Shown: positions 2,989-62,101 of the stretch, in pieces
Position numbering within the stretch: the stretch's first letter is position 1
Layout: each line of letters starts with the position of its first letter
Source of the DNA: Fulvivirga ligni
GTDB lineage: Bacteria; Bacteroidota; Bacteroidia; Cytophagales; Cyclobacteriaceae
Reading direction: 5' to 3'
Assembly: GCF_021389935.1 (NCBI RefSeq)
Contig: NZ_CP089979.1
Location: forward strand, 1 to 64,000
DNA: 64,000 nucleotides
The notes under the pieces: generated by a model
Databases searched by the model: none
Seen by the model: the letters and a program-made list of their open reading frames with translations, nothing else
Told to the model about the DNA's origin: nothing
Translations under genes and position numbers: made by a program

Positions 2989-3005
2989 GTCGGGATGACT
3001 GGATT
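2989..3005. repeat. Attachment-site copy: 17-bp tRNA-Pro 3' end
   Basis: GTCGGGATGACTGGATT is identical to 62026-62042, the 3' end of the intact tRNA-Pro gene read on the plus strand; the match ends inside the T-loop. It marks the left end of the inserted DNA. The next bases (ATAACC) no longer match the tRNA T-loop, as expected for an att site whose other side is island DNA. Confidence 0.75.
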
Positions 3006-40077: not shown

Positions 40078-40083
40078 AGATAT

Positions 40084-42004: not shown

Positions 42005-43371
42005 TATACTAATGTTAAGTTTTCGACAATTAAGTTTTGAACTTTTTCAAAAACATAAAGAAGGTTACTTCTCCCATTTGTACCATAAGATAAGTAATTA
42101 AGAAATTCATGATCATCTTCAATTGCACTTGCCAGTGGCACTAATAGCTGTAGTTCTTCATTTTTTGACCGTATTAGTTCATGGTCGTAGGAAGAAAGCA
42201 ACACCGAAAGTGAAACGAATAATGCTTTATTAATGAGTTGTTTGTAAGCGTCTGGCTCAATATCGCCCCTTCTAATTTTCCGGAAGGCATACCTTTGTCC
42301 CAATAAGTATTTTGCATTATCCATGGCTGTTTTAAATAAATCCACAAAATGTTCTAATTCGGATTGAGGGCTTTTGTACAAATCCTCTGTCAAAGAGTCT
42401 AGCGCATTATCCATTGCTCCATTATAATCCTGCATATTGTTTTGCTCGAAATACCTTTGGAATAAGATGAAACGAAGTGCTACTTCCTGATCCTCCATTC
42501 GAGTGGATCTAATGCTATAGTCTGTAGCAGATTGAAATTCTTCTAACTCAGTCATTCTTCTCAAGGTATCCCTTAGCCCGGTTCCTGCCAAACAATTTCT
42601 TATTTCCTGATTGTTTAATGGTTTGCCGCCAGTGTTAATCCTTCTAAAAATGTCATACTTCACTTTTGCAGGAGAAGAGGGGTCAATGACATTAACAGAA
42701 AATTGCGTTTGATTAAACCAGCGCAAATATTTAGGGTCGAGTCCTTTCTTCGTTCCTTCATCCTTGAAGTAACGGCCATCACAACTATCATTTAAATATT
42801 CCAAATTTCTTAATCGAAATTTATTGTCCATGAAATCTTTGATGGTGGAAATCCGCTGAAGGCCATCTACAATGGTAATTCTACCCTCGTCATCTTCCGA
42901 AAAATAGAACATGGGCAATGGAATTCTTAAGAGAATTGATTCAATTAATCTTGACTTTTGAAAGTTATTCCAGACCAGATTTCTTTGAAAATCAGGAGAC
43001 AGATCAATATCATTATCATCTATCATATCAGATATAAGCCTAAGACTAAACTGTTTTGCATGCACTTTTATGTCTTCAGGGTCAAAAGGCTGAATGGTTT
43101 CCGTATAATCAGTTGCATTGATATCAGTACCTGACTGTTCTGCTTCAATTACCTGAAGTACTAATTGGTCCAGTTTAGTGCGAATATCCTCCTCAGTTTC
43201 TGAGATACGATTATCCTGTTCTTGAATAATAAAAGAATTATCCTCTAAAATCAATTTCATCCATGACTCATTTTCGACATTCATTAATTCGAACTGATCC
43301 TGGTCTGTGTTTAATCGAAACACAGTAAGCAGCACAAATTCATTTTCTCCGGTTTTGAATTCTATTTTCAT
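42004..43371 (-). CDS. DUF262 (GmrS-like N domain) protein
   Basis: 455 residues. The DUF262 core shows PDFQRNLVWNNFQKSRLIESILLRIPLPMFYFSED (about 122-156) and the DGLQRISTIKDF motif (about 165-176; DGQQR in most relatives), the ParB-like fold that binds or hydrolyses NTP. The C-terminal half is helical (FRRINTGGKPLNNQEIRNC). DUF262 proteins act in modification-dependent restriction (GmrSD type) and in anti-phage systems. Here it is inside a type I operon, between hsdS and the ATPase. Confidence 0.85.
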   Translation of the reverse strand: MKIEFKTGENEFVLLTVFRLNTDQDQFELMNVENESWMKLILEDNSFIIQEQDNRISETEEDIRTKLDQLVLQVIEAEQSGTDINATDYTETIQPFDPEDIKVHAKQFSLRLISDMIDDNDIDLSPDFQRNLVWNNFQKSRLIESILLRIPLPMFYFSEDDEGRITIVDGLQRISTIKDFMDNKFRLRNLEYLNDSCDGRYFKDEGTKKGLDPKYLRWFNQTQFSVNVIDPSSPAKVKYDIFRRINTGGKPLNNQEIRNCLAGTGLRDTLRRMTELEEFQSATDYSIRSTRMEDQEVALRFILFQRYFEQNNMQDYNGAMDNALDSLTEDLYKSPQSELEHFVDLFKTAMDNAKYLLGQRYAFRKIRRGDIEPDAYKQLINKALFVSLSVLLSSYDHELIRSKNEELQLLVPLASAIEDDHEFLNYLSYGTNGRSNLLYVFEKVQNLIVENLTLV

Positions 43372-43391
43372 GGTCTATTTTCTTAATACTT

Positions 43392-44714
43392 TTAAAAACT
43401 AACTTTTATCTTCCCCATTACAGCACTATCTATCAAGGTAGCTTTATATTCTTTGAGTTTTTCTATTTGGGCTTGTTGGTGTAACATCGCTTGTTCTATT
43501 TTATTTAATTGCAATTCTATGTGCTGAACAATTACATTTTGTTCATCTATTGGTGGTATAGGTGTATATATAGTTTTTAAGTCATTAATATTAAATCTAA
43601 ATACCTTAATCCCTGTAGCATACTTTCTTAATTCTTTAGAAAAGACCTTTGATGAAAAATGCAAATATTTACTATTTACTGTTTCGCTTTTTGGTTTTAG
43701 TAGCATCTGTTCGCCACCTAATAATCCCAAATCATTCCTATTGTAAAAAACCGTATGACCTAAATCTTCAATTGTCTCAGATGTTGAAATAAAAATAGTA
43801 TCACCATGATTTACAACTTGTGAAGCTTTATAAAATTCATTGTTGACATAGAATTCATATTTTTCATCAACCTCAGTAACTTTATATGCTTTCCCGTATT
43901 GTAAAGCAACATATTCACCTTTACCTAATAATTCCTCTTTACTAAAAGTTGAATTGCCTCTAACGAAGTGACATACACCAAATAATTTCTTCACCTCCCA
44001 ATGCTCCGGTATTTCCCCAATCCATTCCACGCCAGAGTCTCTGAGTTTTACTTTGGGGTCTAAACCTTTGGTCACTGCATTTTGAATGATGATTTGCTTG
44101 CGTTCTTTGAGCAGGGCAATCATCTTTTCTTTTTGGGCAATGGCCTGGTCTATTTTGGCGGTTTTGTCGTCTAGGAAATTGGCGATGGCGGTTTGTTCGG
44201 GGAGGGAAGGAAACGGAACTACAACATCTCCGAACTTATCAAAATATAGACGTAATCTCATATCCATTATGCCTCTAGAATGCCTTTTAAGTTCTGACAC
44301 GCAGCTTGGCATTCTGAACATATAATGAAAAAACCTTCCGTTTACTTCCTTTCTAGCTCTTAGTATATCGTAAGCAGGACTTGTAACACCATCATAATCT
44401 GATACCCCTATCGCTCCCATCCATGCTAGCAACTTATTCACAATTACATCACCCTTTCTTACTCTCCAATAACCATCAGTTGTAGATGCTTTATTGCCTC
44501 TCTCTTCAAGGTCCTTACGGGGCTTAACTCCAATATCTGTGTAAACAGAGAGTAATTCTTCGTTATTGTTTTTGGGAGCTGGCTCAATGATGAGTCTAAA
44601 AAGTGACTTGACTCTTTTTGGTTCCCAGCACTCGGGAATTTTGCCTAACCACTCTACTCCAGAATCTTTGTAGGCTGGATATTTTTTAATGTTTATCTGA
44701 ATGCCTTGGCTCAT
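43392..44714 (-). CDS. hsdS: Type I restriction specificity subunit
   Basis: 440 residues with the two half-S repeats: first YPAYKDSGVEWLGKIPECWEPKRVKSLF (about 13-40) and second KVKLRDSGVEWIGEIPEHWEVKKLF (about 221-245), each followed by a TRD and a long conserved helix (PSLPEQTAIANFLDDKTAKIDQAIAQKEKMIALLKERKQ, and PIDEQNVIVQHIELQLNKIEQAML). Full two-TRD specificity subunit. Sets the sequence recognised by HsdM and HsdR. Confidence 0.95.
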   Translation of the reverse strand: MSQGIQINIKKYPAYKDSGVEWLGKIPECWEPKRVKSLFRLIIEPAPKNNNEELLSVYTDIGVKPRKDLEERGNKASTTDGYWRVRKGDVIVNKLLAWMGAIGVSDYDGVTSPAYDILRARKEVNGRFFHYMFRMPSCVSELKRHSRGIMDMRLRLYFDKFGDVVVPFPSLPEQTAIANFLDDKTAKIDQAIAQKEKMIALLKERKQIIIQNAVTKGLDPKVKLRDSGVEWIGEIPEHWEVKKLFGVCHFVRGNSTFSKEELLGKGEYVALQYGKAYKVTEVDEKYEFYVNNEFYKASQVVNHGDTIFISTSETIEDLGHTVFYNRNDLGLLGGEQMLLKPKSETVNSKYLHFSSKVFSKELRKYATGIKVFRFNINDLKTIYTPIPPIDEQNVIVQHIELQLNKIEQAMLHQQAQIEKLKEYKATLIDSAVMGKIKVSF

Positions 44715-44739
44715 TGTTGTTGTCTTTCATTATTGGATC

Positions 44740-46131
44740 TCATGCAAGGATCATTTGAATTTTCCGTTTTATTAGAGCAATATCTTGCGCTATTTCTCTT
44801 TCCTTCTGCCTAAAGCGACTGACTAAGCTCTCTTGCTGATCTAAGGTAGGAAGTTTAATTTTTAAGTTTTTAAGTTGTGGTAAACTCAGTCGAGGAATAA
44901 CTGCTCCATCTGTCCCAAACCGCTGGTATCTAAAGAGATAATCTAAATATTCTGGAATCAATTTACTCTGATTCACCCTTAAAACGTAGACACTTTGGTG
45001 AACTTCAACTTTCGTATCCAAATTATTTAAGGCATGCTCTCCCATTCTAGAGCCAAAAGAAATGATCAAAATATCTCCTTTTTGAGAAAGAGAAGTTTGC
45101 TGTTTGTTTGCTGATTGAATCAAATCATTGACATTCATTTGATAGTTCTTCAGATTCTGCGAACGTAAAATATAATGTCCTGAATCAGCTATATTTTTAA
45201 ACTGAGGTTCAACAAAATCTATGAGATATTTCAGTTTGGAATCGTGTTCTAATGCACTTGTCGAGTTTTTCAAGTAAGAAATAAAGAATTCTCTTTTTAA
45301 TCGTATCAATTTTTCCAGTGTGTCTACAGTCTTATCTATTGGAGAGATAGTGTGAGCATCCGTAACAAATTCTGAATCATCTCGCAGTGGAAAATTTACA
45401 GATAACTCTGGCTCATTCTTTTTGGCCTTAAGCAAGCTTACCAGATTCCCCAAGTCATATATTGGAACAATGAGTTGTGAGAGTCCTAGATTTGGATCAA
45501 AACCGTCTTTGCTAATCCCAAAATCTTTCACATTCTTCGTTACAAAGTATACTGTATGATCCCGGGTGGTTTCATCTAATATTTTCAATTGATCATTGGA
45601 TTCAATCCATTCTTGTATTGAATATAAAATCAGGTAATCGTTAATGTTGTTTTGCCTACTTTTAAACAATACATGATCCTTAGTAATCCCAAAATTGAGG
45701 GCTTTTTGTTTTAAGTTTTCGGATACATTTATGGGTTTTGCTGATTCATATAGAGTTTTTACTCTAAGGTTAAAGCTTTCACTCAGCTCTCTAAAAGGAA
45801 TACCAAATTCTTCGACCTGAAGCAAAGCATTTCTAAACACCGAACGGGTTTCATCAGTCTTGCAGTGCGGAATTATTTTTGATCCCAAAATTGATTTAAA
45901 ATGCTGTATAATATTATCTTGATAAGCTTTGATAAGGGGCTCAATGGTTGCTTCTTTAAATTCCAAATCAATAATCTCGTTCTTAAGAAGAATGAAACTA
46001 TTAGACTCTTTCAAGGCAATTAAACCTTCCAAATTATCACGATTAGACGTGGTGTAATCAAATTTTGACTCATGATTTTTCCCACAAGCAAAATTAATCC
46101 ACGCACTTGTATCTAGGAATACATAATCCAT
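44740..46131 (-). CDS. PIN-domain protein fused to a half-HsdS recognition domain
   Basis: 463 residues. Residues about 1-225 are a PIN-like domain of the DUF4935 type: MDYVFLDTSAWINFA with D7, then EIIDLEFKEA, and INDYLILYSIQEW and VTKNVKDFG supplying the other acids. A helical linker (about 255-300) leads to a half-specificity domain: GHYILRSQNLKNYQMNVND, ILIISFGSRMGEHAL, VYVLRVNQSKLIPEYLDYLFR and the conserved helix PTLDQQESLVSRFRQKEREIAQDIALIKRKI. It overlaps the hsdM stop by 1 base. A complete hsdS follows, so this is an extra protein, not the only specificity subunit. PIN domains are usually RNases. I know no standard type I system with such a fusion. Confidence 0.7.
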   Translation of the reverse strand: MDYVFLDTSAWINFACGKNHESKFDYTTSNRDNLEGLIALKESNSFILLKNEIIDLEFKEATIEPLIKAYQDNIIQHFKSILGSKIIPHCKTDETRSVFRNALLQVEEFGIPFRELSESFNLRVKTLYESAKPINVSENLKQKALNFGITKDHVLFKSRQNNINDYLILYSIQEWIESNDQLKILDETTRDHTVYFVTKNVKDFGISKDGFDPNLGLSQLIVPIYDLGNLVSLLKAKKNEPELSVNFPLRDDSEFVTDAHTISPIDKTVDTLEKLIRLKREFFISYLKNSTSALEHDSKLKYLIDFVEPQFKNIADSGHYILRSQNLKNYQMNVNDLIQSANKQQTSLSQKGDILIISFGSRMGEHALNNLDTKVEVHQSVYVLRVNQSKLIPEYLDYLFRYQRFGTDGAVIPRLSLPQLKNLKIKLPTLDQQESLVSRFRQKEREIAQDIALIKRKIQMILA

Positions 46132-48476
46132 TACACCCCAAGTATATCCTGTATCATATTTTCGGCTAGTTTTTCAAGTTCAATGATTTCTGCACTCACT
46201 TCCTCCAAGCTTCGCAATGGCTTGTGTTGGTAGAAATACTTGTTAAAACTGATTTCATATCCAATTTTGGTTTTGTCCAAATCAATCCAGGCTTCTTCCA
46301 CATGTGGTTTTACTTCTCGCAGGAAATACTCGTGAATGTTTTCGGCCAAAGGCACACTTTCACTGTCACGCAGGTCGGTTTGGTTATCGTAAATGATGTA
46401 TTCGTCTTTTTTACCACTTGGGTAGTAGCCGTAATCGGGTAGTTGTGCTATGGTGCAATCCAAATGCTGCAAGAGTTGGTCAAGCTTATCACCATTGAGC
46501 TTCTGGGTTTTCTTAATCACCTTTTCGGCTGTTTCATCATACCAGCTCACGGTTTGCAGGATGGCATTCTTCTCAGAGGCTGATAGTTTAATTTTTCTCG
46601 CCTTTAGTTCATCATCTACTAAGTTGGTAAACACATTAAAATCATTGTATTCATCGGTGCCAATAGCCTGCATTAACTGCTGGGCAGTTTCCAATAGCTC
46701 TTTTTGCTTTTTCCATGTGGCAGTGGCCGTAAGTGTTTTACGCTTTTTGGCGTTCATATCCAGGTCGTTTTTCTCACACCACTCCAAAAGTTCTTTTTCA
46801 ATAGATTTCAAATCTGAATATACTTTTTCACCATAATTTTCATAGGCCCATTGCATGGGTTCTTTTAAGGTTTTATCAAAGCGCAATTCCGCAATGCGTT
46901 CCCTCGTAAATTGAGCTTTTAGCCTGGCAGGCCTGTCAATGGTTACTTTGTAATAACCAAAATCGGAGTTGTTAAATACTTTGGCAGCCAAACCATCCTC
47001 TGCTTGTCGTTCAATAGGCTCAAAATTGGTATTTGCCTGTTGAATTTCTTTGATATGAGAAGGTGTCAGTTCGCAGTTCTTGTTACCCAGGTTCTTGCGC
47101 AGTTTGGCATATCGTTGCGAGGCATCAATCAGTAATACTTTCCCTTTTCGCTTCGCTTCTTTGCTGTTGTGCAATAACCAGATATACGTGGTAATGCCTG
47201 TATTGTAAAAAAGGTTATTGGGAAGCTGTATAATACAGTCTAACAAATCATTTTCTATAATGTATCTTCTGATATTGCTTTCACCACTGCCTGCATCACC
47301 CGTAAACAAACTAGAACCATTATGTACCGAAGCAATTCTAGAGCCTATAATACTTTGACTTGTCGGCTTCATTTTATTCACCATCTCCATCAAAAAGAGT
47401 AATTGCCCGTCAGAAGAACGAGAAGTAGCATCCACCTCTTCCGCATTGCCCCAATAATCTTTTAGGGTAATTTGAAAACGGGGGTCAATAATATCTTTAC
47501 CATCTTTGATGTATTTCACCTCACTGCTCCATGACTTTCCATATGGAGGGTTAGACAGCATAAAATCAAACGTATGGCCTGAAAACTCGTCTGTAGATAG
47601 CGTAGAACCAACTCTGATATTTTCGGGGTTGTTCCCCTTGATCATCATGTCAGACTTACAAATGGCATAGGTTTCATCATTAATTTCCTTGCCGTATAGG
47701 TAGACATCACCCATGGCACGAATGGCTCCTTCCTCATCTTTGATAAAATTCTGAGATTCGGTAAGCATTCCTCCCGAGCCACAAGCTGGGTCGTAAATTG
47801 TCATAACCGGCGGTAATTGATCTTTGATAGGATCAAAAACAATATGCGTCATTAAGTCAATTACCTCACGTGGCGTAAAGTGCTCGCCAGCCTCTTCGTT
47901 ATTCTCTTCGTTAAATTTTCGAATCAGTTCCTCAAACACATACCCCATTCCTAAATTAGAAAGTGGTGGTAGTTTTCTACCTTCAGGGTCTTCCTTTTCA
48001 AAGGGAGTCAGGTTAATGTGTGGTGAGGTAAATTTCTCCAACACATCCAATAGCACATCTTTGGTAGCCATGTGTCGGATTTGACTCTTGAGTTTAAACT
48101 TCTCTATAATCTCTTTGACATTAGGGCTAAAGCCATTGAGGTAATCCTCAAAGTTAGCCTGGAGAATCTGTTGACTATTAGTGGCTGTGTCATACAAACG
48201 CTGCAGTGTCCATTCACTGGTATTATAAAACACGTACCCACTAGCATCTCTCAGCCCCGTCTCATCCCATTCGGTAAAACCGGCCTCATCTCGCTGAAAA
48301 GCAAGCTCTTCCATCACTGCTTCTTTGGTGGGTTCTAGCAAAGCATCCAGCCTGCGCAAAACCACCATAGGCAAAATCACATCTCTGTACTTACCTCTTA
48401 CATAAACATCTCTTAAGCAGTCGTCCGCAATGGACCAGATAAAACTTATTAATCTATTGTGTACTGATTGATTCAT
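46131..48476 (-). CDS. hsdM: Type I restriction modification methylase subunit
   Basis: 781 residues, longer than common HsdM (about 500), with an extra C-terminal helical region (about 560-781). Motif I TIYDPACGSGGMLTES (about 228-243), motif IV DFMLSNPPYGKSW (about 303-315), and FTPREVIDLMTHI just before motif I. N-6 adenine methylase that pairs with HsdS. First gene of the operon. The extra C-terminal part is typical of the large Bacteroidota HsdM subfamily. Confidence 0.95.
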   Translation of the reverse strand: MNQSVHNRLISFIWSIADDCLRDVYVRGKYRDVILPMVVLRRLDALLEPTKEAVMEELAFQRDEAGFTEWDETGLRDASGYVFYNTSEWTLQRLYDTATNSQQILQANFEDYLNGFSPNVKEIIEKFKLKSQIRHMATKDVLLDVLEKFTSPHINLTPFEKEDPEGRKLPPLSNLGMGYVFEELIRKFNEENNEEAGEHFTPREVIDLMTHIVFDPIKDQLPPVMTIYDPACGSGGMLTESQNFIKDEEGAIRAMGDVYLYGKEINDETYAICKSDMMIKGNNPENIRVGSTLSTDEFSGHTFDFMLSNPPYGKSWSSEVKYIKDGKDIIDPRFQITLKDYWGNAEEVDATSRSSDGQLLFLMEMVNKMKPTSQSIIGSRIASVHNGSSLFTGDAGSGESNIRRYIIENDLLDCIIQLPNNLFYNTGITTYIWLLHNSKEAKRKGKVLLIDASQRYAKLRKNLGNKNCELTPSHIKEIQQANTNFEPIERQAEDGLAAKVFNNSDFGYYKVTIDRPARLKAQFTRERIAELRFDKTLKEPMQWAYENYGEKVYSDLKSIEKELLEWCEKNDLDMNAKKRKTLTATATWKKQKELLETAQQLMQAIGTDEYNDFNVFTNLVDDELKARKIKLSASEKNAILQTVSWYDETAEKVIKKTQKLNGDKLDQLLQHLDCTIAQLPDYGYYPSGKKDEYIIYDNQTDLRDSESVPLAENIHEYFLREVKPHVEEAWIDLDKTKIGYEISFNKYFYQHKPLRSLEEVSAEIIELEKLAENMIQDILGV

Positions 48477-49745: not shown

Positions 49746-51731
49746 ATGTCTGGTACTATAAAATATAAGCCTTCTGTAATAATCTACATTTCAGTCATAC
49801 TCATTTTTTTCTGGAATGGGTCACATGCTCAGGTAGCCAGCCCGCCCACCCTTGAGCTAGGAATAGCGGAAGTGTTGGGAACTAAAGGAAGTATTGATCT
49901 TCAGATTCTCTCGGAAATCATAAGAGAAAAACAGGTGGAGTTAAAACGGGAATTTATCAAAAAAACAATTTTTAATGATCTAGGCACTCAAAATTATACC
50001 ACCTGGGAGTACGCTTATAATTGTTTTACAATTTTATTAGAGAGTGAGGACAAGAAGTCCATTGAAAAAAACCTACTCAGGAACAGCGCAAATTTGGCGG
50101 TGGTCTATGGCTTCTCCGAATTTTATCTACAAATCTCAAGAAAACTGGGAAACCATCCACTATATAATGTATATGTTAATTTCAAAGTAGACACTACCAA
50201 GTTTTCTCAGGGCGTTTTATTAAACCAATTAAAAGAATATGAGTTCAAAAAGCACACCTTTTCAGATTTCTTCCTGGATCTTGTCTATGATATTTTAAGA
50301 TCCAATAAAACTATTACCGATGACTTGGGATTTTTAATTGATGGATATGCGCTTGGTGAAGGTTATTATAAGGATCATAGTGCTTATCAAGCAATTCGTA
50401 ACAATCAAGAAATTGTAACACTGAGGCAAAGAATCGAAAAAGAGGTTTCATTCTTATTTAAGTATTTTATTCTTTTAAAAAATTATGGAGATCAATCACT
50501 GACCCCTGTTGAATTAAATGAGCAACTGAAGATAGAAGTAAGTAGTATCCCGTTAGATTCAGCAGGATCACTGCGGTCAACCTTAAATCATCATTCGGAT
50601 AATGTGTTCAGTGACCTTCAGAAAATAAGCACGTCAGATGTGAAATCCGAACTTAGTGACAAAATCAGCAGAAATTTACAAGCGTTTATGAGCTTTAAAA
50701 AGAGAGCAGAAGTAACGCAGGATGACCTTTACTTCATTGAAGAAAGTTTAATGCCCTTGTTGATCGAATTAACCTCAAGTAAAGGATTTAACCATAAATA
50801 TCTTATGCTGGCAAGTCAATATGAGCAATGGATAGCATCGGAATTGTCAAATCAAATGTTGTTAGATCTGAAAGATGCTGATATTGCTCATTTTAACCAA
50901 GCCAAGTTACCTAATTACTTGCATGTCCTTGACTTTTTCATTCGGCTGGATCAGTTAGACAAAGCTGAAACCTATCAATTTGTACTGAATACAATTCAAA
51001 CTGTAGGGGATATGTTCAAAGAAAAGAAACTAGGGTTTTATCTCTCAACACTTACTGCTAATATTCAGAAATACAGCATCATCGATGAAGATAAAAATCA
51101 AATTTCAATTAAGGTTGAAGAGATCATCAGCCGTATTTATGAGAGATACGCCAACCGGGATAGCCATATCTTAAATTTTTATTTTTCAATCGGAGCTAAT
51201 CAAGCCATAAGTTCTAATTACAATTTCCGGACAAACACCCTACTTCCCGATTCCGCAGGATTCCAGATCGACACACTAAGTTCTTGGGCTTATGCCGGAG
51301 AGAAGATTGGTCTTAAGTTAAAGTTACTTGACTTTAAAAAACGTAATAGTCATAGCCCTGGGGAAAAGACTGGTAATTGGGGTCTATTAGGCTGTCCTTC
51401 AACTATTAAAACCATAAAGTCCCGAGAACCTCTAGTTTCGGATCTCTATCTCATTGCCTATGGGTCGGGACTGGTTTATAAACTAGTAGAGCTCTCCTCG
51501 GAAAATGAATTTGACGATCCGATATGGGGGGTCGGGCTGGGTGTGGCATTTTACAATGCCTTGGATTTAAATTTTACATACAGCCGCCCTATCAGATCAG
51601 ACAATGACTTTTTTGACCGTTTTGGAAACCAGCAAATTTTCGCCATTTCTGTTGATGTCAAGATTACAGAATACCTGTCCCGATTGGGAAATAAGAAAAA
51701 GAAAAAAGAAGAAACTTCTGAAAGCAACTAA
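49746..51731 (+). CDS. Exported protein with predicted C-terminal barrel-like strands
   Basis: 661 residues with signal peptide MSGTIKYKPSVIIYISVILIFFWNGSHAQ. Most of the chain is helical (about 60-480). The last 100 residues (YLIAYGSGLVYKLVE, IWGVGLGVAFYNALDLNFTYSRPI, FGNQQIFAISVDVKITEYL) look like strands of an outer-membrane barrel. No family recognised. It is followed after 1 base by the patatin gene, so they form a two-gene unit with one regulated promoter. Confidence 0.55.
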   Translation: MSGTIKYKPSVIIYISVILIFFWNGSHAQVASPPTLELGIAEVLGTKGSIDLQILSEIIREKQVELKREFIKKTIFNDLGTQNYTTWEYAYNCFTILLESEDKKSIEKNLLRNSANLAVVYGFSEFYLQISRKLGNHPLYNVYVNFKVDTTKFSQGVLLNQLKEYEFKKHTFSDFFLDLVYDILRSNKTITDDLGFLIDGYALGEGYYKDHSAYQAIRNNQEIVTLRQRIEKEVSFLFKYFILLKNYGDQSLTPVELNEQLKIEVSSIPLDSAGSLRSTLNHHSDNVFSDLQKISTSDVKSELSDKISRNLQAFMSFKKRAEVTQDDLYFIEESLMPLLIELTSSKGFNHKYLMLASQYEQWIASELSNQMLLDLKDADIAHFNQAKLPNYLHVLDFFIRLDQLDKAETYQFVLNTIQTVGDMFKEKKLGFYLSTLTANIQKYSIIDEDKNQISIKVEEIISRIYERYANRDSHILNFYFSIGANQAISSNYNFRTNTLLPDSAGFQIDTLSSWAYAGEKIGLKLKLLDFKKRNSHSPGEKTGNWGLLGCPSTIKTIKSREPLVSDLYLIAYGSGLVYKLVELSSENEFDDPIWGVGLGVAFYNALDLNFTYSRPIRSDNDFFDRFGNQQIFAISVDVKITEYLSRLGNKKKKKEETSESN

Positions 51732-51732
51732 G

Positions 51733-54700
51733 TTGAATAAAACAGTGGCAAAAACAATAACAGATGGTTCATGGCAATCATGGCTCTTAAAAAAATTAAA
51801 ATGGCTAGTGCTGACCTGGCTTGTATTGACCATAATTCAAATCGTTATCATCTCGAATTTTCACATTAACGATTTTATAGCCCATCCCCAACATGAGCAC
51901 TTCGACTGTGAACAACTGCTAAGGGGTGTAAATTGCGCTATTGTTCAAGCCGGCCATTGCTGGTGGTATTGGGCCTTTTTTATAATTGATATTTTTTGGG
52001 CTCTGTTTCTGCTATTATGTATAGGCATTTGGGCAAAGGATAACAATAATTGTCCCTTGCTGCTTGTCACGAAGAGTAAGACACCTGCCGCTTACATTTT
52101 TGTTGCCGCGGCCTCACTCGCTTACCTGACTGACCTGATGGAGGGCGTTATGTATTCTTTTTTTATATACGTTCCGTGGATCATTTATATCATTGATGCC
52201 AAAACAATTGCCTACATCATATGCCTGGGCTTCCTTTTATATGGCCTTTTTAAGAACCCGTTGCTTCAACGTCCGAAAATATATCCCAGGTTTCTAATTA
52301 CCTGCATATTAAGCATCTTGTGCATCGGAATCATTTATGGATTAATAATGCTTATTCCCCAGGGAAGGACGATTGTCATTGATCTTTTCTTTCTGCCCTG
52401 GAATATCCCCATATTGTTTTTGTTGCTTACCTTCCTGGCCATACTTGTCTCTCATTACCCAGTATATTTTGATATCTGGCTGTATGACAATAACCGATGC
52501 ATAGATTTGAAGATGGATGAAAAAGATAAAATATTGGGCATGGGAATCATTTACTATGCGCCAAAGAATGACCATAAGAGTTATCCGGACTATGATGACA
52601 ACAGGGTGAAAATCATGCGGCGTAGTTTGGGGATCTTATTATATATAGCAGTAATAAACATTATGATCTCCGTAGGCGCCCATATTTATGGCATTGTGGT
52701 AAACGCCATTGGAATTTCGGCCATCCTGTTCGGATTGGTCATCGCCTGGTACTTTTACTTGGGCAGAAGGTACACCTCCTGGAGAAAAGAGCTGGCTGAA
52801 GAATCCCTTGATAATCATACGGCTGAAAGCATAGTCAAGGAAATTCGTGGACACGTCATCATTTTCAATGTGGTTTATATCATCGCCTTTCTGCTGCCGG
52901 TGATAGCCTGTGGGCTGGGACTATGGTTTGCCTTGCATCCTGTGACATATTGGCTGGTACTGGCAGCTTTGCCATGGCAAATACTGGGTTATATTCAATT
53001 TAAGATTGTAAGGACTTATTTTAAATATATCTATTATTCCGAGTGGCTTAAAAACAGGAATCCTGCCATGTTCAATGCCACCGTGTTGTCCGTCTTTAAG
53101 CGGTTCAACCCAAAGACCAGTAAAGCCGATCCAACCAGGCCTCCAAAATGGTATTGCTTGGGGCTGTTAAGTGACAACATCAGCTACCTCAAGCTGATGC
53201 GCTTTGGAGGCATTACATCGTTGATGGTTTTGCTAATAGCCAATTTTTGGTTTGATCTGACAACGGTATTGAACCCGATGAATATCATATTATGCTACCT
53301 CATCGTATTTTATTATTTTCTGACCATCCTGTTCAAACATATCCTGTTCTATTACCGGAATCAGCCGGTACCTTTCAGTAATTTCTATCGTTACGGTATG
53401 CTCATCGTAGTCTTGGCGATAATGGCCGTGGCAACCTACTTTGGTACGAGGGGGAATAACCTGCATACGCTGGAGACAGCGCCCATCCGGAATGAAATGT
53501 CCAGCTCGGATTTTTTTAGGGATATCCAAAACCATCCCGATACCTCGTTTTTCTTGGTGGGGTCCTATGGGGGTGGTCTTAAGGCCAACTTATGGAATAT
53601 GCTGCTACTGAACGATATTCAGGAAAATGCACCTCAATTTTTTGATCGAACGCTGGCCCTTTCCGGCGTGTCCGGCGGTGCACTGGGGATTGGAAATTTT
53701 GTCGTTGCCCTTAAGGAACATCCCCATGATATCAATGATAAGGCACGACAGATCGGTGAATCGAATGTGCTGTCCAATGAACTTACCTATCTGCTGGGCA
53801 GGGACTGGATACGTGAATACCTCCCCTGGTCAGAAGGTGGGGACCGGGCTTTTAAGAGTATGGCCTATCATGCCAGGAATGCAGGGATGGGTAAATTTAA
53901 TGAAGTGAGCTATTTGGATTATTGGAAAGATTTTTATGCGTCTCGGCAAAGGCAGGGATTGCGTTTCCCGGCCCTGATACTAAACTCAACCATGGTCGGG
54001 GGCAAGCATGGTGTGGCATCATCAGTCAAATTCCCGGAGGAGGCTTTCCCGGGTGCTATTCGCACCGAAAAGTTACCCCATAACTCCTTAAAAGGGTTGA
54101 CATTTTATAGTGCTGTCTCCACGACCAATCGTTTTCCTATTGTCAGCCCGTCCGCCAAAATTGAAGGAATGGGAAGTTTTTTGGACGGGGGATACTTTGA
54201 AAATTCAGGATTACTGAGCCTGATCAGCTTATATAATTACATCCAGGACCATGAGGATAGCCTTGATCTGAATCCCATTTTTGTTAACATCATTAATGAT
54301 CAAGATTTTTATATCCGGTCAAAACTGGAAACTTGGGGCATTGAAGTGAAGGAGTTGGAGGACTCTGATGAATTCGGGTCGATCATTTCCACGGTGACCT
54401 CTATTGACAAATTACCCGACTATGTTGGCAACGAAATTGAAGCTAGAGGCCATCGGCTAATAAAAGTTTTAATGCCCCATATGCTAAGCTATAATTTAGT
54501 CAGGGAACAGCTCAAAGGTGAAATAAAAAACCCCCTTGGGTTGATGAATAAAATTGCAGAACATAATGAGCAGATCATACAGGCATTAAAAGATTATGAC
54601 GGCTACTGCTACGAAGAGTGGGGAATAGTTCAGCCGCCATTAGCCCGATTGTTAAGCATTCCTGCTGTTCGTTATGAAGAGGCCATGGTGAAATGTCATC

Positions 54701-54744
54701 CTGCCGTTAGGGATTCATTAGAAAAAATTTATCAACACCTTTAA
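51733..54744 (+). CDS. Multi-pass membrane protein with C-terminal patatin-like phospholipase domain
   Basis: About 1003 residues from the TTG at 51733; the frame extends to 51604 but that part overlaps the upstream gene. The N-terminal 600 residues contain about ten hydrophobic segments (KWLVLTWLVLTIIQIVIIS, WYWAFFIIDIFWALFLLLCIG, and later ones to about 53400). The C-terminal domain has the oxyanion glycines GSYGGGLKANLW (about 608-619), the serine elbow LALSGVSGGALGIG (about 639-652) and DGGYFENSG (about 816-824), the catalytic dyad of patatin phospholipases. Local G+C is clearly higher than in neighbouring genes (34 of the 60 bases from 53641 are G or C), pointing to a separate origin. 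It may hydrolyse membrane lipids on a signal. Confidence 0.75.
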   Translation: MNKTVAKTITDGSWQSWLLKKLKWLVLTWLVLTIIQIVIISNFHINDFIAHPQHEHFDCEQLLRGVNCAIVQAGHCWWYWAFFIIDIFWALFLLLCIGIWAKDNNNCPLLLVTKSKTPAAYIFVAAASLAYLTDLMEGVMYSFFIYVPWIIYIIDAKTIAYIICLGFLLYGLFKNPLLQRPKIYPRFLITCILSILCIGIIYGLIMLIPQGRTIVIDLFFLPWNIPILFLLLTFLAILVSHYPVYFDIWLYDNNRCIDLKMDEKDKILGMGIIYYAPKNDHKSYPDYDDNRVKIMRRSLGILLYIAVINIMISVGAHIYGIVVNAIGISAILFGLVIAWYFYLGRRYTSWRKELAEESLDNHTAESIVKEIRGHVIIFNVVYIIAFLLPVIACGLGLWFALHPVTYWLVLAALPWQILGYIQFKIVRTYFKYIYYSEWLKNRNPAMFNATVLSVFKRFNPKTSKADPTRPPKWYCLGLLSDNISYLKLMRFGGITSLMVLLIANFWFDLTTVLNPMNIILCYLIVFYYFLTILFKHILFYYRNQPVPFSNFYRYGMLIVVLAIMAVATYFGTRGNNLHTLETAPIRNEMSSSDFFRDIQNHPDTSFFLVGSYGGGLKANLWNMLLLNDIQENAPQFFDRTLALSGVSGGALGIGNFVVALKEHPHDINDKARQIGESNVLSNELTYLLGRDWIREYLPWSEGGDRAFKSMAYHARNAGMGKFNEVSYLDYWKDFYASRQRQGLRFPALILNSTMVGGKHGVASSVKFPEEAFPGAIRTEKLPHNSLKGLTFYSAVSTTNRFPIVSPSAKIEGMGSFLDGGYFENSGLLSLISLYNYIQDHEDSLDLNPIFVNIINDQDFYIRSKLETWGIEVKELEDSDEFGSIISTVTSIDKLPDYVGNEIEARGHRLIKVLMPHMLSYNLVREQLKGEIKNPLGLMNKIAEHNEQIIQALKDYDGYCYEEWGIVQPPLARLLSIPAVRYEEAMVKCHPAVRDSLEKIYQHL

Positions 54745-55903: not shown

Positions 55904-56010
55904 CATCAAAAATAAGAGTACCCACGCGTTGTATATGCTGTTCACATTTAGTGAGTGTATTTATTCATTACCTCACCTTACGGGTGTACAAGCACCCTCA
56001 GTCGGATAGT
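55904..56010 (-). ncRNA. Candidate Cas12f-type guide RNA (scaffold 55928-56010, possible guide to 55904)
   Basis: On the minus strand, directly after the dCas12f stop. Hairpin 1: GGGTG (55993-55997) with CACCC (55982-55986), loop CTTGTA. Spacer GTAAG. Hairpin 2: GTGAG (55972-55976) with CTCAC (55951-55955), 15-base loop. Then TAAATGTGAACAGCATATACAAC to 55928. This order (G-rich stem with a GCTTG loop, short A-rich spacer, long GAG/CTC stem, A-rich tail ending in CAAC) closely follows the core of Cas12f guide scaffolds. The bases after CAAC, GCGTGGGTACTCTTATTTTT (55927-55908), would be the guide. The remaining 55718-55903 holds no gene; a 14-base palindrome lies there. Confidence 0.6.
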
Positions 56011-57108
56011 CTAATCTACTATCACTTCAATACCTGCTTTATCAGCTTTGTATTTTATTTTAGTAATCAGCTCATAATAGCTCCAGTTCCTTAACACAAA
56101 TTCTTCCTCCTTGGCTATAGTGATCTTCTCTTCCTGATTTAATAATATGAGTGTTCCTGCCTGGTGTTTAATGCAAAAGTCAATCAATCTCTTACTGTAT
56201 ACATGTATACGATGATATACATAGTTTCTTTCTGCCTCTCTAAGCCTGTCTACTGCTTTTAACTTTCTTTTAATTCCTTTGCCGGATCTATTATAGGTGG
56301 CTCCCACCTGTGCCCTTTTAGTAGCAGCCTGGATAGCTAATCTCCTGTATAGAAACTCTTCTCTTGTACCAATAGTAAGCTTGGCCTTATCTATTTTCAC
56401 TACTATAGGATATTGCAAAGATAAAGAAGCTTCTGCCATTACCTCCGGTTTAATTTCCTGCTGATCTCTCTCTATTTCAAATACCGGTAGCCAGAAAATC
56501 TTACCATCCTTGAGCTTAATGTGAGAAGTACACAGTTTGGTCTCTCCATTAATCACTTTTTCCAATAGCCTGCGCTTATCAGTATAATCATTCCCTAAAT
56601 AAGTGCGAAAAGGAATTTGAAATAGACGGAAACAAAATGCAGTTTTCTCAGAAACATGGGCAAGCCCTCCAAGACATTCAGGACTAAATGGAAAAGCCAT
56701 GTCCCTCCTGAAATTTTTTAATGAACGTTCACCCTTCCAATATGCATTTTTATTCTTATTGAAAGAAGCAATTAAAGTCCTGTTGAGGTTGGACAGAATA
56801 TTGGTAGGGATCTCTCCCAGGAAACGGTCTGATACCACTCGATACGTACAATTGATACGAGAGCGTTGCAAGATACCAGCATCATCCTTCTTTTTATCAA
56901 CCAGTTTATATTTTATCCCTTCCGATAAATAAAAGAATTCTTTGATCATCTCCTGTGTATAAAGATGGGACACGATTAAATTGGCTGCTCTAAAGCAGCG
57001 GTTCTGCCATTGATAGAGCTTATTCAAAACCTCCTTTCTTTCCTCTTGCGTAGGCAGGTCTACTAATAGCTGGATCTTACGAGTAAGTTTAAGGGTAGAC
57101 TTTTCCAT
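56011..57108 (-). CDS. Nuclease-dead Cas12f/TnpB-like protein
   Basis: 365 residues from the ATG at 57108, one base after the sigma stop; the open frame upstream overlaps the sigma gene and is not used. N-terminal helical part (1-125), a WED-like strand group with LKNFRRDMAFPF (about 130-141), then a RuvC-like region: PIVVKIDKAKLTIG (234-247), a long bridge-like helix with GKGIKRKLKAVDRLREAERNYVYHRIHVYSKRLIDFC (277-312), AGTLILLNQEEK (317-328) and NWSYYELITKIKYKADKAGIEVI (341-363). Canonical RuvC-I (D-x-G) is distorted and the RuvC-II glutamate (E-D/N-L) is replaced by L-N-Q. The chain ends at VD, before the RuvC-III and zinc ribbon. It is therefore predicted not to cut DNA, but could still bind RNA and target DNA. 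Confidence 0.8.
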   Translation of the reverse strand: MEKSTLKLTRKIQLLVDLPTQEERKEVLNKLYQWQNRCFRAANLIVSHLYTQEMIKEFFYLSEGIKYKLVDKKKDDAGILQRSRINCTYRVVSDRFLGEIPTNILSNLNRTLIASFNKNKNAYWKGERSLKNFRRDMAFPFSPECLGGLAHVSEKTAFCFRLFQIPFRTYLGNDYTDKRRLLEKVINGETKLCTSHIKLKDGKIFWLPVFEIERDQQEIKPEVMAEASLSLQYPIVVKIDKAKLTIGTREEFLYRRLAIQAATKRAQVGATYNRSGKGIKRKLKAVDRLREAERNYVYHRIHVYSKRLIDFCIKHQAGTLILLNQEEKITIAKEEEFVLRNWSYYELITKIKYKADKAGIEVIVD

Positions 57109-57109
57109 G

Positions 57110-57892
57110 TTAAGCTGTTTGCAATGCCTGATGGTGTTTATCTTGTAATAGCTTATACGCAACCATGAATTGGCTATGCACTTCCTTTTGCGATAGATTG
57201 AGCTGTCTGGCAATGGCAGCAAAGGAATACTTTTTTTCACAGCGAAGTTTCAATACCTCCGCTTGCTCCTCAGTCATACTACCCTGCACCTTCATACCTA
57301 ACGCTGGCCTGTTTTTAGTTTTTCCCTGGTTGATAATCATTTTAATATCCCGGATGGCCATTTTCACTTCATAACAAGTCTCCTGAACATTCTTTCCCAT
57401 AGACTGGGCAATAGCTTTATACTGAAAGCCATATTTTAAGCAAAGTTCAATTAAATGCCTTCTGTCAGCATCCAGCAAGGGAAGTACCCTCCCAACTCTA
57501 TCAAAGGCCTGTTGCTCCTGCTCCTGTGCTTGCTGGATTTCAAACTCACTTTCAGGATCGTAGCCAGCCATATATTCTTGGTAGTTATCAAACTCCTCTA
57601 ATGAATTGATCTTCCTAAGAAACTTGTTCTTAGGGCTGCTATAATAGGTAATGCAACTTTTGGTAATCACAAACCTCAAGAAAAAGAAAATATGCTCAGG
57701 AGATTGAATATTCTCTCTGTTTACCCACAACCTCAAAAAAGCATCCTGCAATAATGAATCTACAATAAAGCTATCATTGATTAGGTTCATGCCGATCCAG
57801 AAGATGCGGCGACTGTATTGAGAGTAGATTTTATCTAAGGCGGAAATGTGACCCTTTATAAAGCTCGAATAAGATGTGCTTAAATGACTCAA
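57110..57892 (-). CDS. ECF-type sigma factor, partner of dCas12f
   Basis: 260 residues, TTG start at 57892 (an upstream stop excludes a longer frame). Sigma region 2: ALDKIYSQYSRRIFWIGMNLINDSFIVDSLLQDAFLRLW (about 18-56). Region 4: GRVLPLLDADRRHLIELCLKYGFQYKAIAQSMGKNVQETCYEVKMAIRDIK (about 134-184). An extra C-terminal HTH follows: MTEEQAEVLKLRCEKKYSFAAIARQLNLSQKEVHSQFMVAYKLL (about 206-249), unusual for ECF factors, which normally end after region 4. Directly followed by the dCas12f gene (stop, one base, ATG), so they are made together. In the recently reported sigma-dCas12f systems of Bacteroidota, dCas12f and its RNA recruit the sigma factor to start transcription. Confidence 0.85.
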   Translation of the reverse strand: MSHLSTSYSSFIKGHISALDKIYSQYSRRIFWIGMNLINDSFIVDSLLQDAFLRLWVNRENIQSPEHIFFFLRFVITKSCITYYSSPKNKFLRKINSLEEFDNYQEYMAGYDPESEFEIQQAQEQEQQAFDRVGRVLPLLDADRRHLIELCLKYGFQYKAIAQSMGKNVQETCYEVKMAIRDIKMIINQGKTKNRPALGMKVQGSMTEEQAEVLKLRCEKKYSFAAIARQLNLSQKEVHSQFMVAYKLLQDKHHQALQTA

Positions 57893-57935: not shown

Positions 57936-57986
57936 AACTAAACGATTAGTTCTACTTTAAACTTATTTGCTTAGTTATAACTAAGC
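57936..57986. promoter_or_regulatory. Two related operators between the sigma operon and the XRE gene
   Basis: Site 1: AACTAA-ACGA-TTAGTT (57936-57951). Site 2: GCTTAGTTATAACTAAGC, a perfect 18-base palindrome (57969-57986). Both use TTAGTT/AACTAA half-sites. They lie in the 119-base gap between the divergent starts at 57892 and 58024, so the XRE protein probably controls both sides. Confidence 0.6.
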
Positions 57987-58023: not shown

Positions 58024-58257
58024 ATGAATAAAAAAAGCGATTTTGAAATGGCTGTGGTCAGCAGGGTAAAAGATCTACGGGTAGCAAGGAATCTGTCTCA
58101 GGATGATTTAGCTATTTTTCTGGATCTTTCTCGTGGTTTTATTGGTCAGATTGAAAGCCCGAGATACCCTAGTAAATACAACCTAAACCATCTTAATACC
58201 CTCGCTAAACATTTTGGATGTTCACCAAAAGATTTTCTTCCAGAAAATCCTCTATAA
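58024..58257 (+). CDS. XRE-family regulator divergent from sigma-dCas12f
   Basis: 77 residues from the ATG at 58024. HTH: VSRVKDLRVARNLSQDDLAIFLDLSRGFIGQIESPRYPSKYNLNHLNTLAKHFGCSPKDFLP (about 12-73), the short Cro/C1 type that autoregulates. Divergent from the sigma-dCas12f operon with two inverted repeats between, so a likely repressor or switch for it. Confidence 0.75.
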   Translation: MNKKSDFEMAVVSRVKDLRVARNLSQDDLAIFLDLSRGFIGQIESPRYPSKYNLNHLNTLAKHFGCSPKDFLPENPL

Positions 58258-60523: not shown

Positions 60524-61750
60524 TTATGCTTGGAACAACTTCTCGCGAAGCATCCCCATATCTTCACTCACCTTATGTTCTACCACTTTAGCATAAATCT
60601 GGGTTGTAGTAATTTTAGTATGACCTAACATTTTACTAACTGATTCTATTGGTACCCCATTACTTAAAGTGACTGTAGTAGCAAAGGTATGTCTGGCTAG
60701 GTGAAAGGTGAGGTTTTTCCGTATTCTACACAAATCAGCTATTTCCTTTAAATATGAGTTAAGCTTCTGGTTTGATATGACAGGAAATAGGGTTCCATTA
60801 ATTTCAGCTCTGGGATGTTCTTTGTATTTACTTATAATATCCATCGCCTTGGGTAAAATCGGAATACTTACTTTCTGCTGCGTCTTTTGCCTAGTGGTCA
60901 TTATCCATAATTTACCATCTACCCCCTTACCTAGATTTTCTGGTGCTAACTTCATTACATCAATATAAGCTAAGCCGGTATAACAGCTAAAAACGAATAA
61001 ATCCCTAACCCAATCTAACCTGGCTATCTCGAACTTCTTATCCTGCAACCTTATCAACTCATCCTGATCGAGAAAACCTCTCTCAACTTTATTAAACTTC
61101 AGCTGATATCTTTCGAACGGGTCTTTTGCCATCCACTCTAACCGTACTGCCAACCGTATCAACTTCCTTAATCTTTCAAGGTGCTTCATCACACCATTAT
61201 TTGATAAGGGTTTCTGATGATCTGTTGGCTGATATGCCCTCAAATAAAGCTCAAACTCTGTAATAAACTTGTAAGTAAGCTCAGACAAATACATATCTGA
61301 TTTTCTGTAACGCTTCTTGAGGTAGCGTAGAATATATTTCTTGGTAGTAAAATAATTCTTTAAGGTGCCATCAGACAAAACATTTTTGAAATTGGTATTA
61401 TGATAATCAACTAACCGAGTAATAGTATGTCCATCTTCATCCAGACCAAGAGCCATGTTCTTGAGAGCTTCTGCCGTAATCAATTTTTTCTCAATCTGCA
61501 TTTGCTGATAGCTATTAGTAATGCCAGATCTAAATTGTTCCAGATAATGATTTAGTTTCTTTACTTCCATAGCATTACCTTTCGCCCGACCACCTAATTC
61601 ATTCCAATTGGTGACTTTAATTCTTTTTTTCATGGAGATCTCTACTCTTTCAGAATCTACAGTAATACGGGCATAAATAGGCACCAGACCATTTTTAAGC
61701 TTATTCCTTCTGATAATAAATTGTACTCCGAATGTTTTTGAACTTCTCAT
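60524..61750 (-). CDS. Tyrosine-type site-specific integrase, island B
   Basis: 408 residues, same domain layout as the integrase at 35304. Box I SCYTGLAYIDVMKLAP (Ala in place of the first Arg, as in IntDOT-like enzymes), box II LTFHLARHTFATTVTLSNGVPIESVSKMLGHTKITTTQIYAKV with the final tyrosine. It lies beside the tRNA-Pro gene. Clearly related to but not identical with the island A integrase, so the two islands each brought their own. Confidence 0.9.
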   Translation of the reverse strand: MRSSKTFGVQFIIRRNKLKNGLVPIYARITVDSERVEISMKKRIKVTNWNELGGRAKGNAMEVKKLNHYLEQFRSGITNSYQQMQIEKKLITAEALKNMALGLDEDGHTITRLVDYHNTNFKNVLSDGTLKNYFTTKKYILRYLKKRYRKSDMYLSELTYKFITEFELYLRAYQPTDHQKPLSNNGVMKHLERLRKLIRLAVRLEWMAKDPFERYQLKFNKVERGFLDQDELIRLQDKKFEIARLDWVRDLFVFSCYTGLAYIDVMKLAPENLGKGVDGKLWIMTTRQKTQQKVSIPILPKAMDIISKYKEHPRAEINGTLFPVISNQKLNSYLKEIADLCRIRKNLTFHLARHTFATTVTLSNGVPIESVSKMLGHTKITTTQIYAKVVEHKVSEDMGMLREKLFQA

Positions 61751-62025: not shown

Positions 62026-62042
62026 GTCGGGATGACTGGATT
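62026..62042. repeat. Attachment site in the intact tRNA-Pro 3' end
   Basis: GTCGGGATGACTGGATT, the same 17 bases as at 2989; its first 13 are also at 36810. It covers the 3' acceptor arm and the 3' side of the T-arm of the tRNA-Pro gene (CGTCATCC-type arm on the minus strand). The common target type for tyrosine integrases. Confidence 0.75.
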
Positions 62043-62101
62043 CGAACCAGCGGCCCCCACTACCCTAAAGTGGTGCGCTAACCGGGCTGCGCCACATCCC
62101 G
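62027..62101 (-). tRNA. tRNA-Pro, anticodon AGG
   Basis: 75 bases, cloverleaf intact. Acceptor CGGGATG (62101-62095) pairs with CATCCCG (62034-62028), discriminator A. D-arm GCGC/GCGC. Anticodon stem CCACT/AGTGG with loop TTAGGGT, so anticodon AGG, reading CCT codons. T-arm CTGG-TTCGAAT-CCAG. CCA is not encoded. A34 in proline tRNA is uncommon in bacteria. The attachment site of both islands. Confidence 0.9.

What the first reader, a model, noticed from the sequence alone, without database searches (positions are those of the whole stretch)
56011..57892. Sigma factor plus nuclease-dead Cas12f operon: candidate RNA-guided transcription system
Seen: an ECF-like sigma gene and a Cas12f/TnpB-like gene one base apart on the same strand. 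The Cas12f-like protein is 365 residues; its RuvC-II glutamate is replaced (L-N-Q) and the chain stops before RuvC-III and the zinc ribbon, so cutting is not expected. Known: nuclease-dead Cas12f proteins linked to sigma-E factors in Bacteroidota were recently reported to drive RNA-guided transcription (from memory; I cannot check whether this locus is in that set). Inference: this locus makes such a complex and switches on a target gene without a normal promoter.
Basis: partly seen in the sequence, partly recalled or inferred. Interest (0 to 1): 0.95.

Follow-up and report, generated by a model that had tools for sequence, protein, structure and literature searches.

The report
RNA-guided gene activator on mobile island
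A bacterium carries, on what looks like a mobile stretch of DNA, a disarmed CRISPR-type protein paired with a transcription-starting factor and a guide RNA, a known kind of RNA-aimed gene switch whose relatives appear to be aimed at folded leader RNAs in front of nutrient-uptake genes.

Summary
Confirmed. Minus strand 56011-57108 encodes a 365-aa nuclease-dead Cas12f, one base after a sigma-E gene (57110-57892). The dCas12f matches PDB 9n9c 'Nuclease-deactivated Cas12f' end to end (E 2.7e-181), the sigma matches 9n9q chain 'RpoE' (E 2.8e-92): a member of the dCas12f-sigmaE RNA-guided transcription family. All three RuvC residues are lost.

The operon lies by an integrase in a probable 59-kb tRNA-Pro island.

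New here: guides of several relatives match, after a 5' G, sites inside or about 183-210 bp downstream of a covarying ~150-nt leader RNA without a credible Rfam match. It heads SusC operons and, in 34 of 59 loci, sigmaE-dcas12f itself. The matched strand is half of a terminator-like hairpin, so initiation there could give terminator-free mRNA.

Own genome: one leader, before a susC-susD-tlpA-like operon at 5.60 Mb, with only 13/17 guide identity (7-nt seed). A coding-region site matches better (14/17). The target here is unproven.

The parts
57110..57892 (-). sigma-E/ECF-type sigma factor, 260 aa, TTG start; two stretches match Pfam sigma region 4, the better at the C-terminus (205-247)
   Evidence: 9n9q_C 'RpoE' E 2.8e-92 over residues 13-260
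56011..57108 (-). nuclease-dead Cas12f, 365 aa; RuvC-I Asp to Ser228, RuvC-II Glu lost (LNQ), RuvC-III and zinc ribbon absent
   Evidence: 9n9c_A E 2.7e-181
55928..55999 (-). guide RNA scaffold: three stems, the last repeat-like, ending CATATACAAC, just after the dcas12f stop
   Evidence: alignment A2 of 40 sequences, 18 pairs, 10 with changes on both sides; folded alone z -1.48 (55928-56010)
55911..55927 (-). guide, 17 nt: GCGTGGGTACTCTTATT
   Evidence: scaffold/guide boundary from alignment A2; in 15 genomes' best guide-leader pairs identity falls after position 17
58027..58257 (+). divergent small XRE/Cro-type HTH regulator; 56% identical over 72 aa to an HTH beside a leader RNA in another genome (L185)
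57970..57985 (.). 16-bp perfect palindrome CTTAGTTATAACTAAG between the HTH and sigma genes, candidate operator
60524..61750 (-). tyrosine recombinase (integrase) of the putative island
   Evidence: Pfam Phage_integrase, Phage_int_SAM_5, Arm-DNA-bind_5
62026..62101 (-). tRNA-Pro; its 3' end (62026-62042) carries a 17-bp repeat, GTCGGGATGACTGGATT
2989..3005 (+). other copy of the 17-bp repeat, candidate far attachment site of a ~59-kb island (2989-62042)

Best explanation
This is an intact-looking locus of the dCas12f-sigmaE RNA-guided transcription family carried on a putative integrative island. The guide RNA encoded right behind dcas12f is bound by dCas12f; the complex recognises DNA after a 5' G through about 16-17 bases, and the partner sigma-E recruits RNA polymerase to start transcription downstream. 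In several relatives the sites lie within, or about 183-210 bp downstream of, a structured leader RNA in front of SusC (outer-membrane uptake) operons and, in many genomes, of the sigmaE-dcas12f operon itself. Where the site is inside the leader, the matched strand is the 5' arm of a terminator-like hairpin, so a transcript started downstream would lack that arm and escape termination. In this genome the likeliest target by context is the single leader copy before the susC-susD-tlpA-like operon at 5595710-5595860, but the match is weak. Shown: family, active-site loss, guide RNA anatomy, conserved leader, candidate target positions in relatives. Inferred: complex formation, activation, terminator bypass, target in this host.
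For: Near-full-length PDB matches of both proteins; the dCas12f at L025 (Allomuricauda taeanensis) reads identically to chain 9n9c_A over the 364 residues printed. gRNA scaffold with covariation, found by pattern behind the gene in 55 of 59 loci and by eye in one more, L039. A. taeanensis (G390): the guide's only hit within 2 mismatches besides its own locus is GTTGTGGGATACCCGTT, 183 bp downstream of the leader and 262 bp before a SusC ORF. A. abyssi (G399): one guide matches the leader hairpin over 17 nt in two copies; the other guide's sites lie 186 and 210 bp downstream of the same leaders. Sinomicrobium (G391): 16/16 at two copies, one before SusC. Echinicola (G145): a site with 13 of 15 guide bases 196 bp downstream of a weak leader copy. 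Leader RNA covariation: 147 both-side cells against 47 shuffled; terminator fold 33 against 9.
Against: In this genome the guide matches its only leader at 13 of 17, mismatched at positions 8-11; a site in a coding frame (1194787-1194803, minus strand) has a 5' G, a 10-nt seed and 14 of 17. Own-genome guide-leader matches are not significantly better than cross-genome ones (14.0 vs 13.7 of 16, P 0.066). Some genomes (several Salegentibacter, Paenimyroides, Echinicola) carry leaders whose hairpins their guides do not match. Some guide-like sites have A, not G, before them (L164; L200, L204). No expression or binding data. The TTG start of sigma is unproven.
Confidence: 0.75

Rival explanations
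1. The effector is intact but has no working target in this host: the island arrived recently and the guide is an orphan, or its target lies on another replicon or mobile element.
For: No site with 5' G plus an 11-nt seed in the genome; the 8 one-mismatch sites outside the locus all overlap ORFs of over 200 aa; island features; dCas12f is 84% identical to Sinomicrobium and 83% to one same-genus genome, and 8 of 390 family genomes have it at E up to 1e-20.
Against: The one leader in the genome shares a 5' G, a 7-nt seed and 13/17 bases with the guide and leads a susC operon, as in relatives.
Confidence: 0.3
2. The guide acts on the leader RNA rather than on DNA: it resembles the terminator's 5' arm and could compete for the 3' arm, acting as a trans antiterminator.
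For: The guide-like strand pairs alternatively with a 5' or a 3' arm of the leader, both covarying.
Against: Guides of A. taeanensis, A. abyssi (second) and Echinicola match sites outside the hairpin, 183-210 bp downstream, and a G precedes those sites; neither is needed for RNA pairing. The partner sigma factor would have no role.
Confidence: 0.08
3. A TldR-like RNA-guided repressor; the adjacent sigma gene is incidental.
For: Nuclease-dead TnpB homologues acting as RNA-guided repressors are described (passages of PMC13418256).
Against: Sigma sits just before dCas12f in the great majority of relatives looked at, and both proteins match chains of one solved entry, 9n9q.
Confidence: 0.05
4. A decayed TnpB remnant beside an unrelated sigma gene.
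For: Truncated C-terminus and lost catalytic residues.
Against: In 24 aligned relatives of 44-84% identity the chain ends at the same place (a stop within two codons), the same residues are lost and 65 columns are invariant; solved homologue.
Confidence: 0.02

Closest known systems
dCas12f-sigmaE RNA-guided transcription system of Allomuricauda (Flagellimonas) taeanensis; PDB 9n9c, 9n9m, 9n9o, 9n9q
   Same: Operon order sigma then dcas12f, protein lengths, lost RuvC residues, guide RNA scaffold directly downstream; 72% dCas12f identity
   Different: Different guide (GCGTGGGTACTCTTATT against TTGTGGGATATACGCTA); no leader RNA before sigma, a divergent XRE HTH instead; on a putative tRNA-Pro island
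TldR (TnpB-like nuclease-dead repressors)
   Same: Nuclease-dead, RNA-guided transcription regulator of the TnpB/Cas12 superfamily (passages of PMC13418256)
   Different: TldR represses; a partner sigma is not part of it (recalled). Here a sigma-E is encoded with it
Cas12f proteins with solved structures and RuvC motifs kept (PDB 9nzo, 9nzr)
   Same: phmmer E 3.8e-39 over residues 85-362 for 9nzo
   Different: RuvC-I Asp, RuvC-II Glu and the zinc-ribbon end are lacking here

Membership tests
dCas12f-sigmaE RNA-guided transcription system | Cas12f homologue with inactivated RuvC | tested here: met
   RuvC-I D to S, RuvC-II E lost, RuvC-III/zinc ribbon absent, by sequence
dCas12f-sigmaE RNA-guided transcription system | Genetically linked sigma-E factor of the same lineage | tested here: met
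   One base apart; 9n9q_C 'RpoE' E 2.8e-92 over residues 13-260
dCas12f-sigmaE RNA-guided transcription system | Guide RNA encoded next to dcas12f | tested here: met
   Conserved scaffold plus guide downstream in the window and in 55 of 59 loci by pattern; expression not tested
dCas12f-sigmaE RNA-guided transcription system | Genomic target with 5' G adjacent motif, upstream of the regulated gene | tested here: inconclusive
   Good candidates in several relatives; in this genome only a 13/17 site at the leader and a 14/17 site in a coding frame
dCas12f-sigmaE RNA-guided transcription system | Guide-dependent recruitment of sigma and RNA polymerase, start site set by distance from the R-loop | not testable with these tools
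   Recalled from the literature; the preprint I tried is not held
TldR RNA-guided repressor | No partner sigma gene in the operon (recalled feature) | tested here: not met
   Sigma-E gene linked here and in relatives; repression itself not testable here
Type V-F CRISPR-Cas immunity | Active RuvC nuclease and a CRISPR array | tested here: not met
   RuvC residues lost; one scaffold unit only in the window and no repeat array around the locus

The most novel reading that the evidence does not exclude
dCas12f-sigmaE is the activating partner of an apparently undescribed class of structured leader RNAs (with a divergent XRE regulator) that sit before SusC/TlpA uptake operons in the window's family and in Flavobacteriaceae-type genomes. 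The guide copies one arm of the leader's terminator, so RNA-guided initiation inside the leader bypasses the terminator, and where the leader also precedes sigmaE-dcas12f it closes a positive feedback loop.
Probability: 0.35. Interest if true: 0.85.

Novelty: new member of a known kind. Interest (0 to 1): 0.62.

Why it matters
It places a natural CRISPRa-like system on a putative mobile island. Comparing relatives supplies something directly testable: what natural RNA-guided transcription complexes are aimed at. In several genomes they appear aimed at leader regions of outer-membrane uptake operons, partly inside a covarying leader RNA for which Rfam gave no credible match. If right, it joins RNA-guided initiation with terminator bypass and autoregulation, and gives many genomes in which guide and target can be read off together.

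Tried and rejected
Guide targets in the own genome: the 17-nt guide with up to 3 mismatches gave 9 sites including itself, against 12 for the reversed-pattern control. The best other (2 mismatches, 6097307) overlaps a coding frame and has A before it; a 3-mismatch site (1194787) has a 5' G and a 10-nt seed but lies in a 360-aa frame. 5' G plus 11-nt seed with one mismatch: 9 sites including its own locus (control 10), the 8 others all overlapping ORFs of over 200 aa. A leader-hairpin pattern missed the own copy; the covariance model found it.

Guide-leader co-variation: the permutation test did not reach significance (P 0.066). It used 15 genomes with GCG-type guides that I chose out of 29 with a leader (G396, G398, G412 and G413, with GCG- or GGCG-type guides, were left out). 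Guides and sites were typed: 2 of 4 guides for G391, 3 of 7 for G395, 1 of 5 for G397, 1 of 2 for G399; 1 of 2 leader copies for G395, 2 of 5 for G407; identical sites of G391 entered once.

Leader enrichment: 7 of 8 dCas12f genomes against 49 of 382 others carry it (Fisher P 6e-6). The model was trained mostly on leaders beside dcas12f, so this is biased upward.

Leader counts: regex hits L042:17890 and L046:9811(-) were spurious and dropped; L052's leader is over 2 kb from sigma and not counted as adjacent. Of the 25 loci without an adjacent leader, at least four (L007, L022, L056, L059) have too little upstream DNA to show one. In the rod-structure test one of five measures (further pair types) did not exceed the shuffles, 46 against 45.7. 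In one search a second SusC query picked by script was not a SusC and gave no hits. No structure prediction was run, because a solved homologue of 72% identity exists. Rfam gave only matches below the families' gathering scores for the leader regions.

Papers: seven searches (listings only) did not list the primary dCas12f-sigmaE paper or this leader RNA; passages only were seen of PMC13418256 and PMC13203232. Most subscription papers and bioRxiv preprints are not held, so this is not evidence that the leader is unpublished.

Full report
OBSERVATION. The reported operon is there. On the minus strand a sigma gene (57110-57892, 260 aa, TTG start) is followed after one base by a 365-aa Cas12f-like gene (56011-57108). 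The sigma has Pfam Sigma70_r2 (E 6e-5, just under its cut-off) and Sigma70_r4_2 (E 3.4e-9, best at residues 205-247). The Cas12f-like protein matches PADLOC Cas12f at E 9.5e-52. Of the Cas12f1-like zinc-ribbon domain only profile positions 1-20 of 60 are touched (E 0.075).

CATALYTIC RESIDUES. Against the Cas12f 9nzo, the RuvC-I Asp ('VDLGI') faces Ser ('ASLSL') and RuvC-II 'MERL' faces 'LLNQ'. In an alignment of 25 sequences (the window's and 24 relatives) Ser228 is conserved in at least 90%, and in all 24 relatives a stop follows within two codons of the aligned end. Motif names are from general knowledge.

FAMILY. phmmer against the PDB: P0001 matches 9n9c_A 'Nuclease-deactivated Cas12f' over residues 1-364, E 2.7e-181 (also 9n9m, 9n9o, 9n9q). 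The sigma matches 9n9q_C 'RpoE' over 13-260, E 2.8e-92. The chain 9n9c_A reads identically, over the residues printed, to the translation of locus L025, Allomuricauda taeanensis. That these entries belong to a reported RNA-guided transcription system (Sternberg laboratory, 2025) is recalled; the preprint I tried is not held, and the passages seen of one related paper, PMC13418256, concern TldR repressors and do not name Cas12f. A scan of named genomes gave 59 loci, four of them partial matches. In the window's own family 8 of 390 genomes have it at E up to 1e-20.

GUIDE RNA. Behind dcas12f a conserved scaffold ending CATATACAAC is followed by a variable stretch. A pattern finds it in 55 of 59 loci, and L039 has it by eye; L034 ends just after the gene, L057 and L059 are partial matches. 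40 of the 89 distinct copies found were aligned; the fold has 18 pairs, 10 of them with changes on both sides. In the window the scaffold is 55928-55999 and the guide GCGTGGGTACTCTTATT (55911-55927). The window scaffold alone is not unusually stable (z -1.48); the evidence is comparative.

LEADER RNA. Upstream of sigma in 34 of the 59 loci (pattern count) lies a ~150-nt element. The 40-sequence alignment shows a rod structure: 91% of cells paired and 147 both-side-changed cells, against 47 in shuffles, though the number of further pair types does not exceed the shuffles. A mutually exclusive terminator-like hairpin uses one strand of it (94% of cells, 33 against 9), often followed by a T-rich run. 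Rfam gave only sub-threshold matches. A covariance model found it in 12 of 13 and 17 of 20 genomes at E up to 0.01 (some of these genomes gave the training copies), and in 56 of 390 family genomes, 49 of which had no dCas12f match. Of 93 copies examined with up to about 1.5 kb downstream (all 28, 42 of 45, and 23), 27 precede sigmaE-dcas12f, 25 a SusC-type gene, 5 a TlpA-like gene, and 36 gave none of these, contig ends included. A divergent HTH-like gene stands beside 22 of the 23 copies L170-L192, judged by eye.

GUIDES AND TARGETS IN RELATIVES. GCG-type guides match the terminator arm of the leader: 16/16 in Sinomicrobium G391 (two copies) and Yeosuana G392 (the leader of its own operon), 17/17 in A. 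abyssi G399 (two copies), 15/16 in G394, G404, G406, G407 and G414, 14 in G393 and G395, 13 in G165 and G400, 12 in G000 and G397, 9 in G402. Identity per position stays at 11-15 of 15 genomes to position 17, except position 11 (5 of 15), then falls to 3-7. Other guides hit the same leader regions further down: in A. taeanensis 183 bp downstream of the leader and 262 bp before a SusC ORF; in A. abyssi 186 and 210 bp downstream; in Echinicola G145, a 13/15 site 196 bp downstream of a weak (39-bit) leader copy. A G precedes the site in these cases. Against a strict G: a 15/18 site before SusC in Salegentibacter agarivorans (L164) and two Echinicola-type G207 sites have A. Guides of several Salegentibacter genomes, Paenimyroides and Echinicola do not match the leader hairpin. 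The own-versus-other genome test was not significant (P 0.066), so guides fit a conserved consensus rather than their own copies, and shared ancestry of the motif is not excluded.

THIS GENOME. The operon here has no leader; a divergent XRE HTH (58027-58257) and a 16-bp palindrome (57970-57985) stand in its place. The model finds one leader in the genome, at 5595710-5595860 (108 bits, E 3.3e-24; z -4.77). It leads a susC-type gene (CarbopepD_reg_2 and Plug domains, 1081 aa), susD (476 aa) and an AhpC/TSA-family gene (424 aa); an ECF sigma and FecR lie further on. The guide aligns to its hairpin GCGTGGGCCTACTTATT at 13/17 with G before it, the best of the 16-kb stretch, but with mismatches at 8-11. 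A site at 1194787-1194803 fits better (5' G, 10-nt seed, 14/17) yet lies in a 360-aa frame; the 2-mismatch site at 6097307 has A before it and lies in a coding frame. Hit numbers do not exceed the reversed-pattern controls.

ISLAND. A 17-bp repeat at 2989-3005 and at the 3' end of tRNA-Pro (62026-62042), with a tyrosine recombinase between the operon and the tRNA, suggests a ~59-kb integrative island. It carries a type I restriction-modification cluster.

MECHANISM. Shown: family, lost active site, conserved gRNA, candidate target positions in relatives. Inferred: the ternary complex recruits polymerase and starts transcription downstream. A start anywhere between the guide site and the CCACGCC arm would give mRNA unable to form the terminator. 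I recall a start about 46 bp from the target in the published system, but that number is unverified.

VERDICT. A sound member of a known kind. The novelty lies in the leader RNA and its link to guides, which is strong as anatomy and unproven as function.

Noticed in passing
window 2989-62042: Probable 59-kb integrative island bounded by a 17-bp repeat at tRNA-Pro, with an integrase (60524-61750) and, judged by eye, a second integrase-like ORF (35304-36533), a resolvase-like ORF (21154-21744) and large ORFs at 24120-33600.
   Followed up: partly
window 37030-48476: Type I restriction-modification cluster (HsdR-like, Methylase_S, HsdM-like by Pfam) with other ORFs between, in the same putative island.
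   Followed up: partly
L120:5711-5861 (genome 5595710-5595860) and loci L170-L192: A covarying leader RNA without a credible Rfam match, found in 56 of 390 family genomes, 49 of them without a dCas12f match, usually beside a divergent HTH gene: a candidate regulatory RNA in its own right.
   Followed up: partly
L037, L044, L046, L047: Leeuwenhoekiella loci carry three to six full guide RNA units in a row, about 135-183 bp apart, with different guides: a natural multi-guide arrangement.
   Followed up: no
L016:20004-20089(-) and 11109-11191(+): One Allomuricauda abyssi contig has two guide scaffolds of different classes; both guides have sites in the same two leader regions (L135, L160).
   Followed up: partly
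L005, L032, L036, L054 upstream of sigma: In these loci a small conserved ORF on the same strand, HTH-like by eye, takes the place of the leader RNA before sigma.
   Followed up: no
window 49746-54744: Two large ORFs (661 and 1046 aa) beyond the guide RNA; the second has a sub-threshold patatin match (E 0.052) and looks hydrophobic by eye.
   Followed up: no
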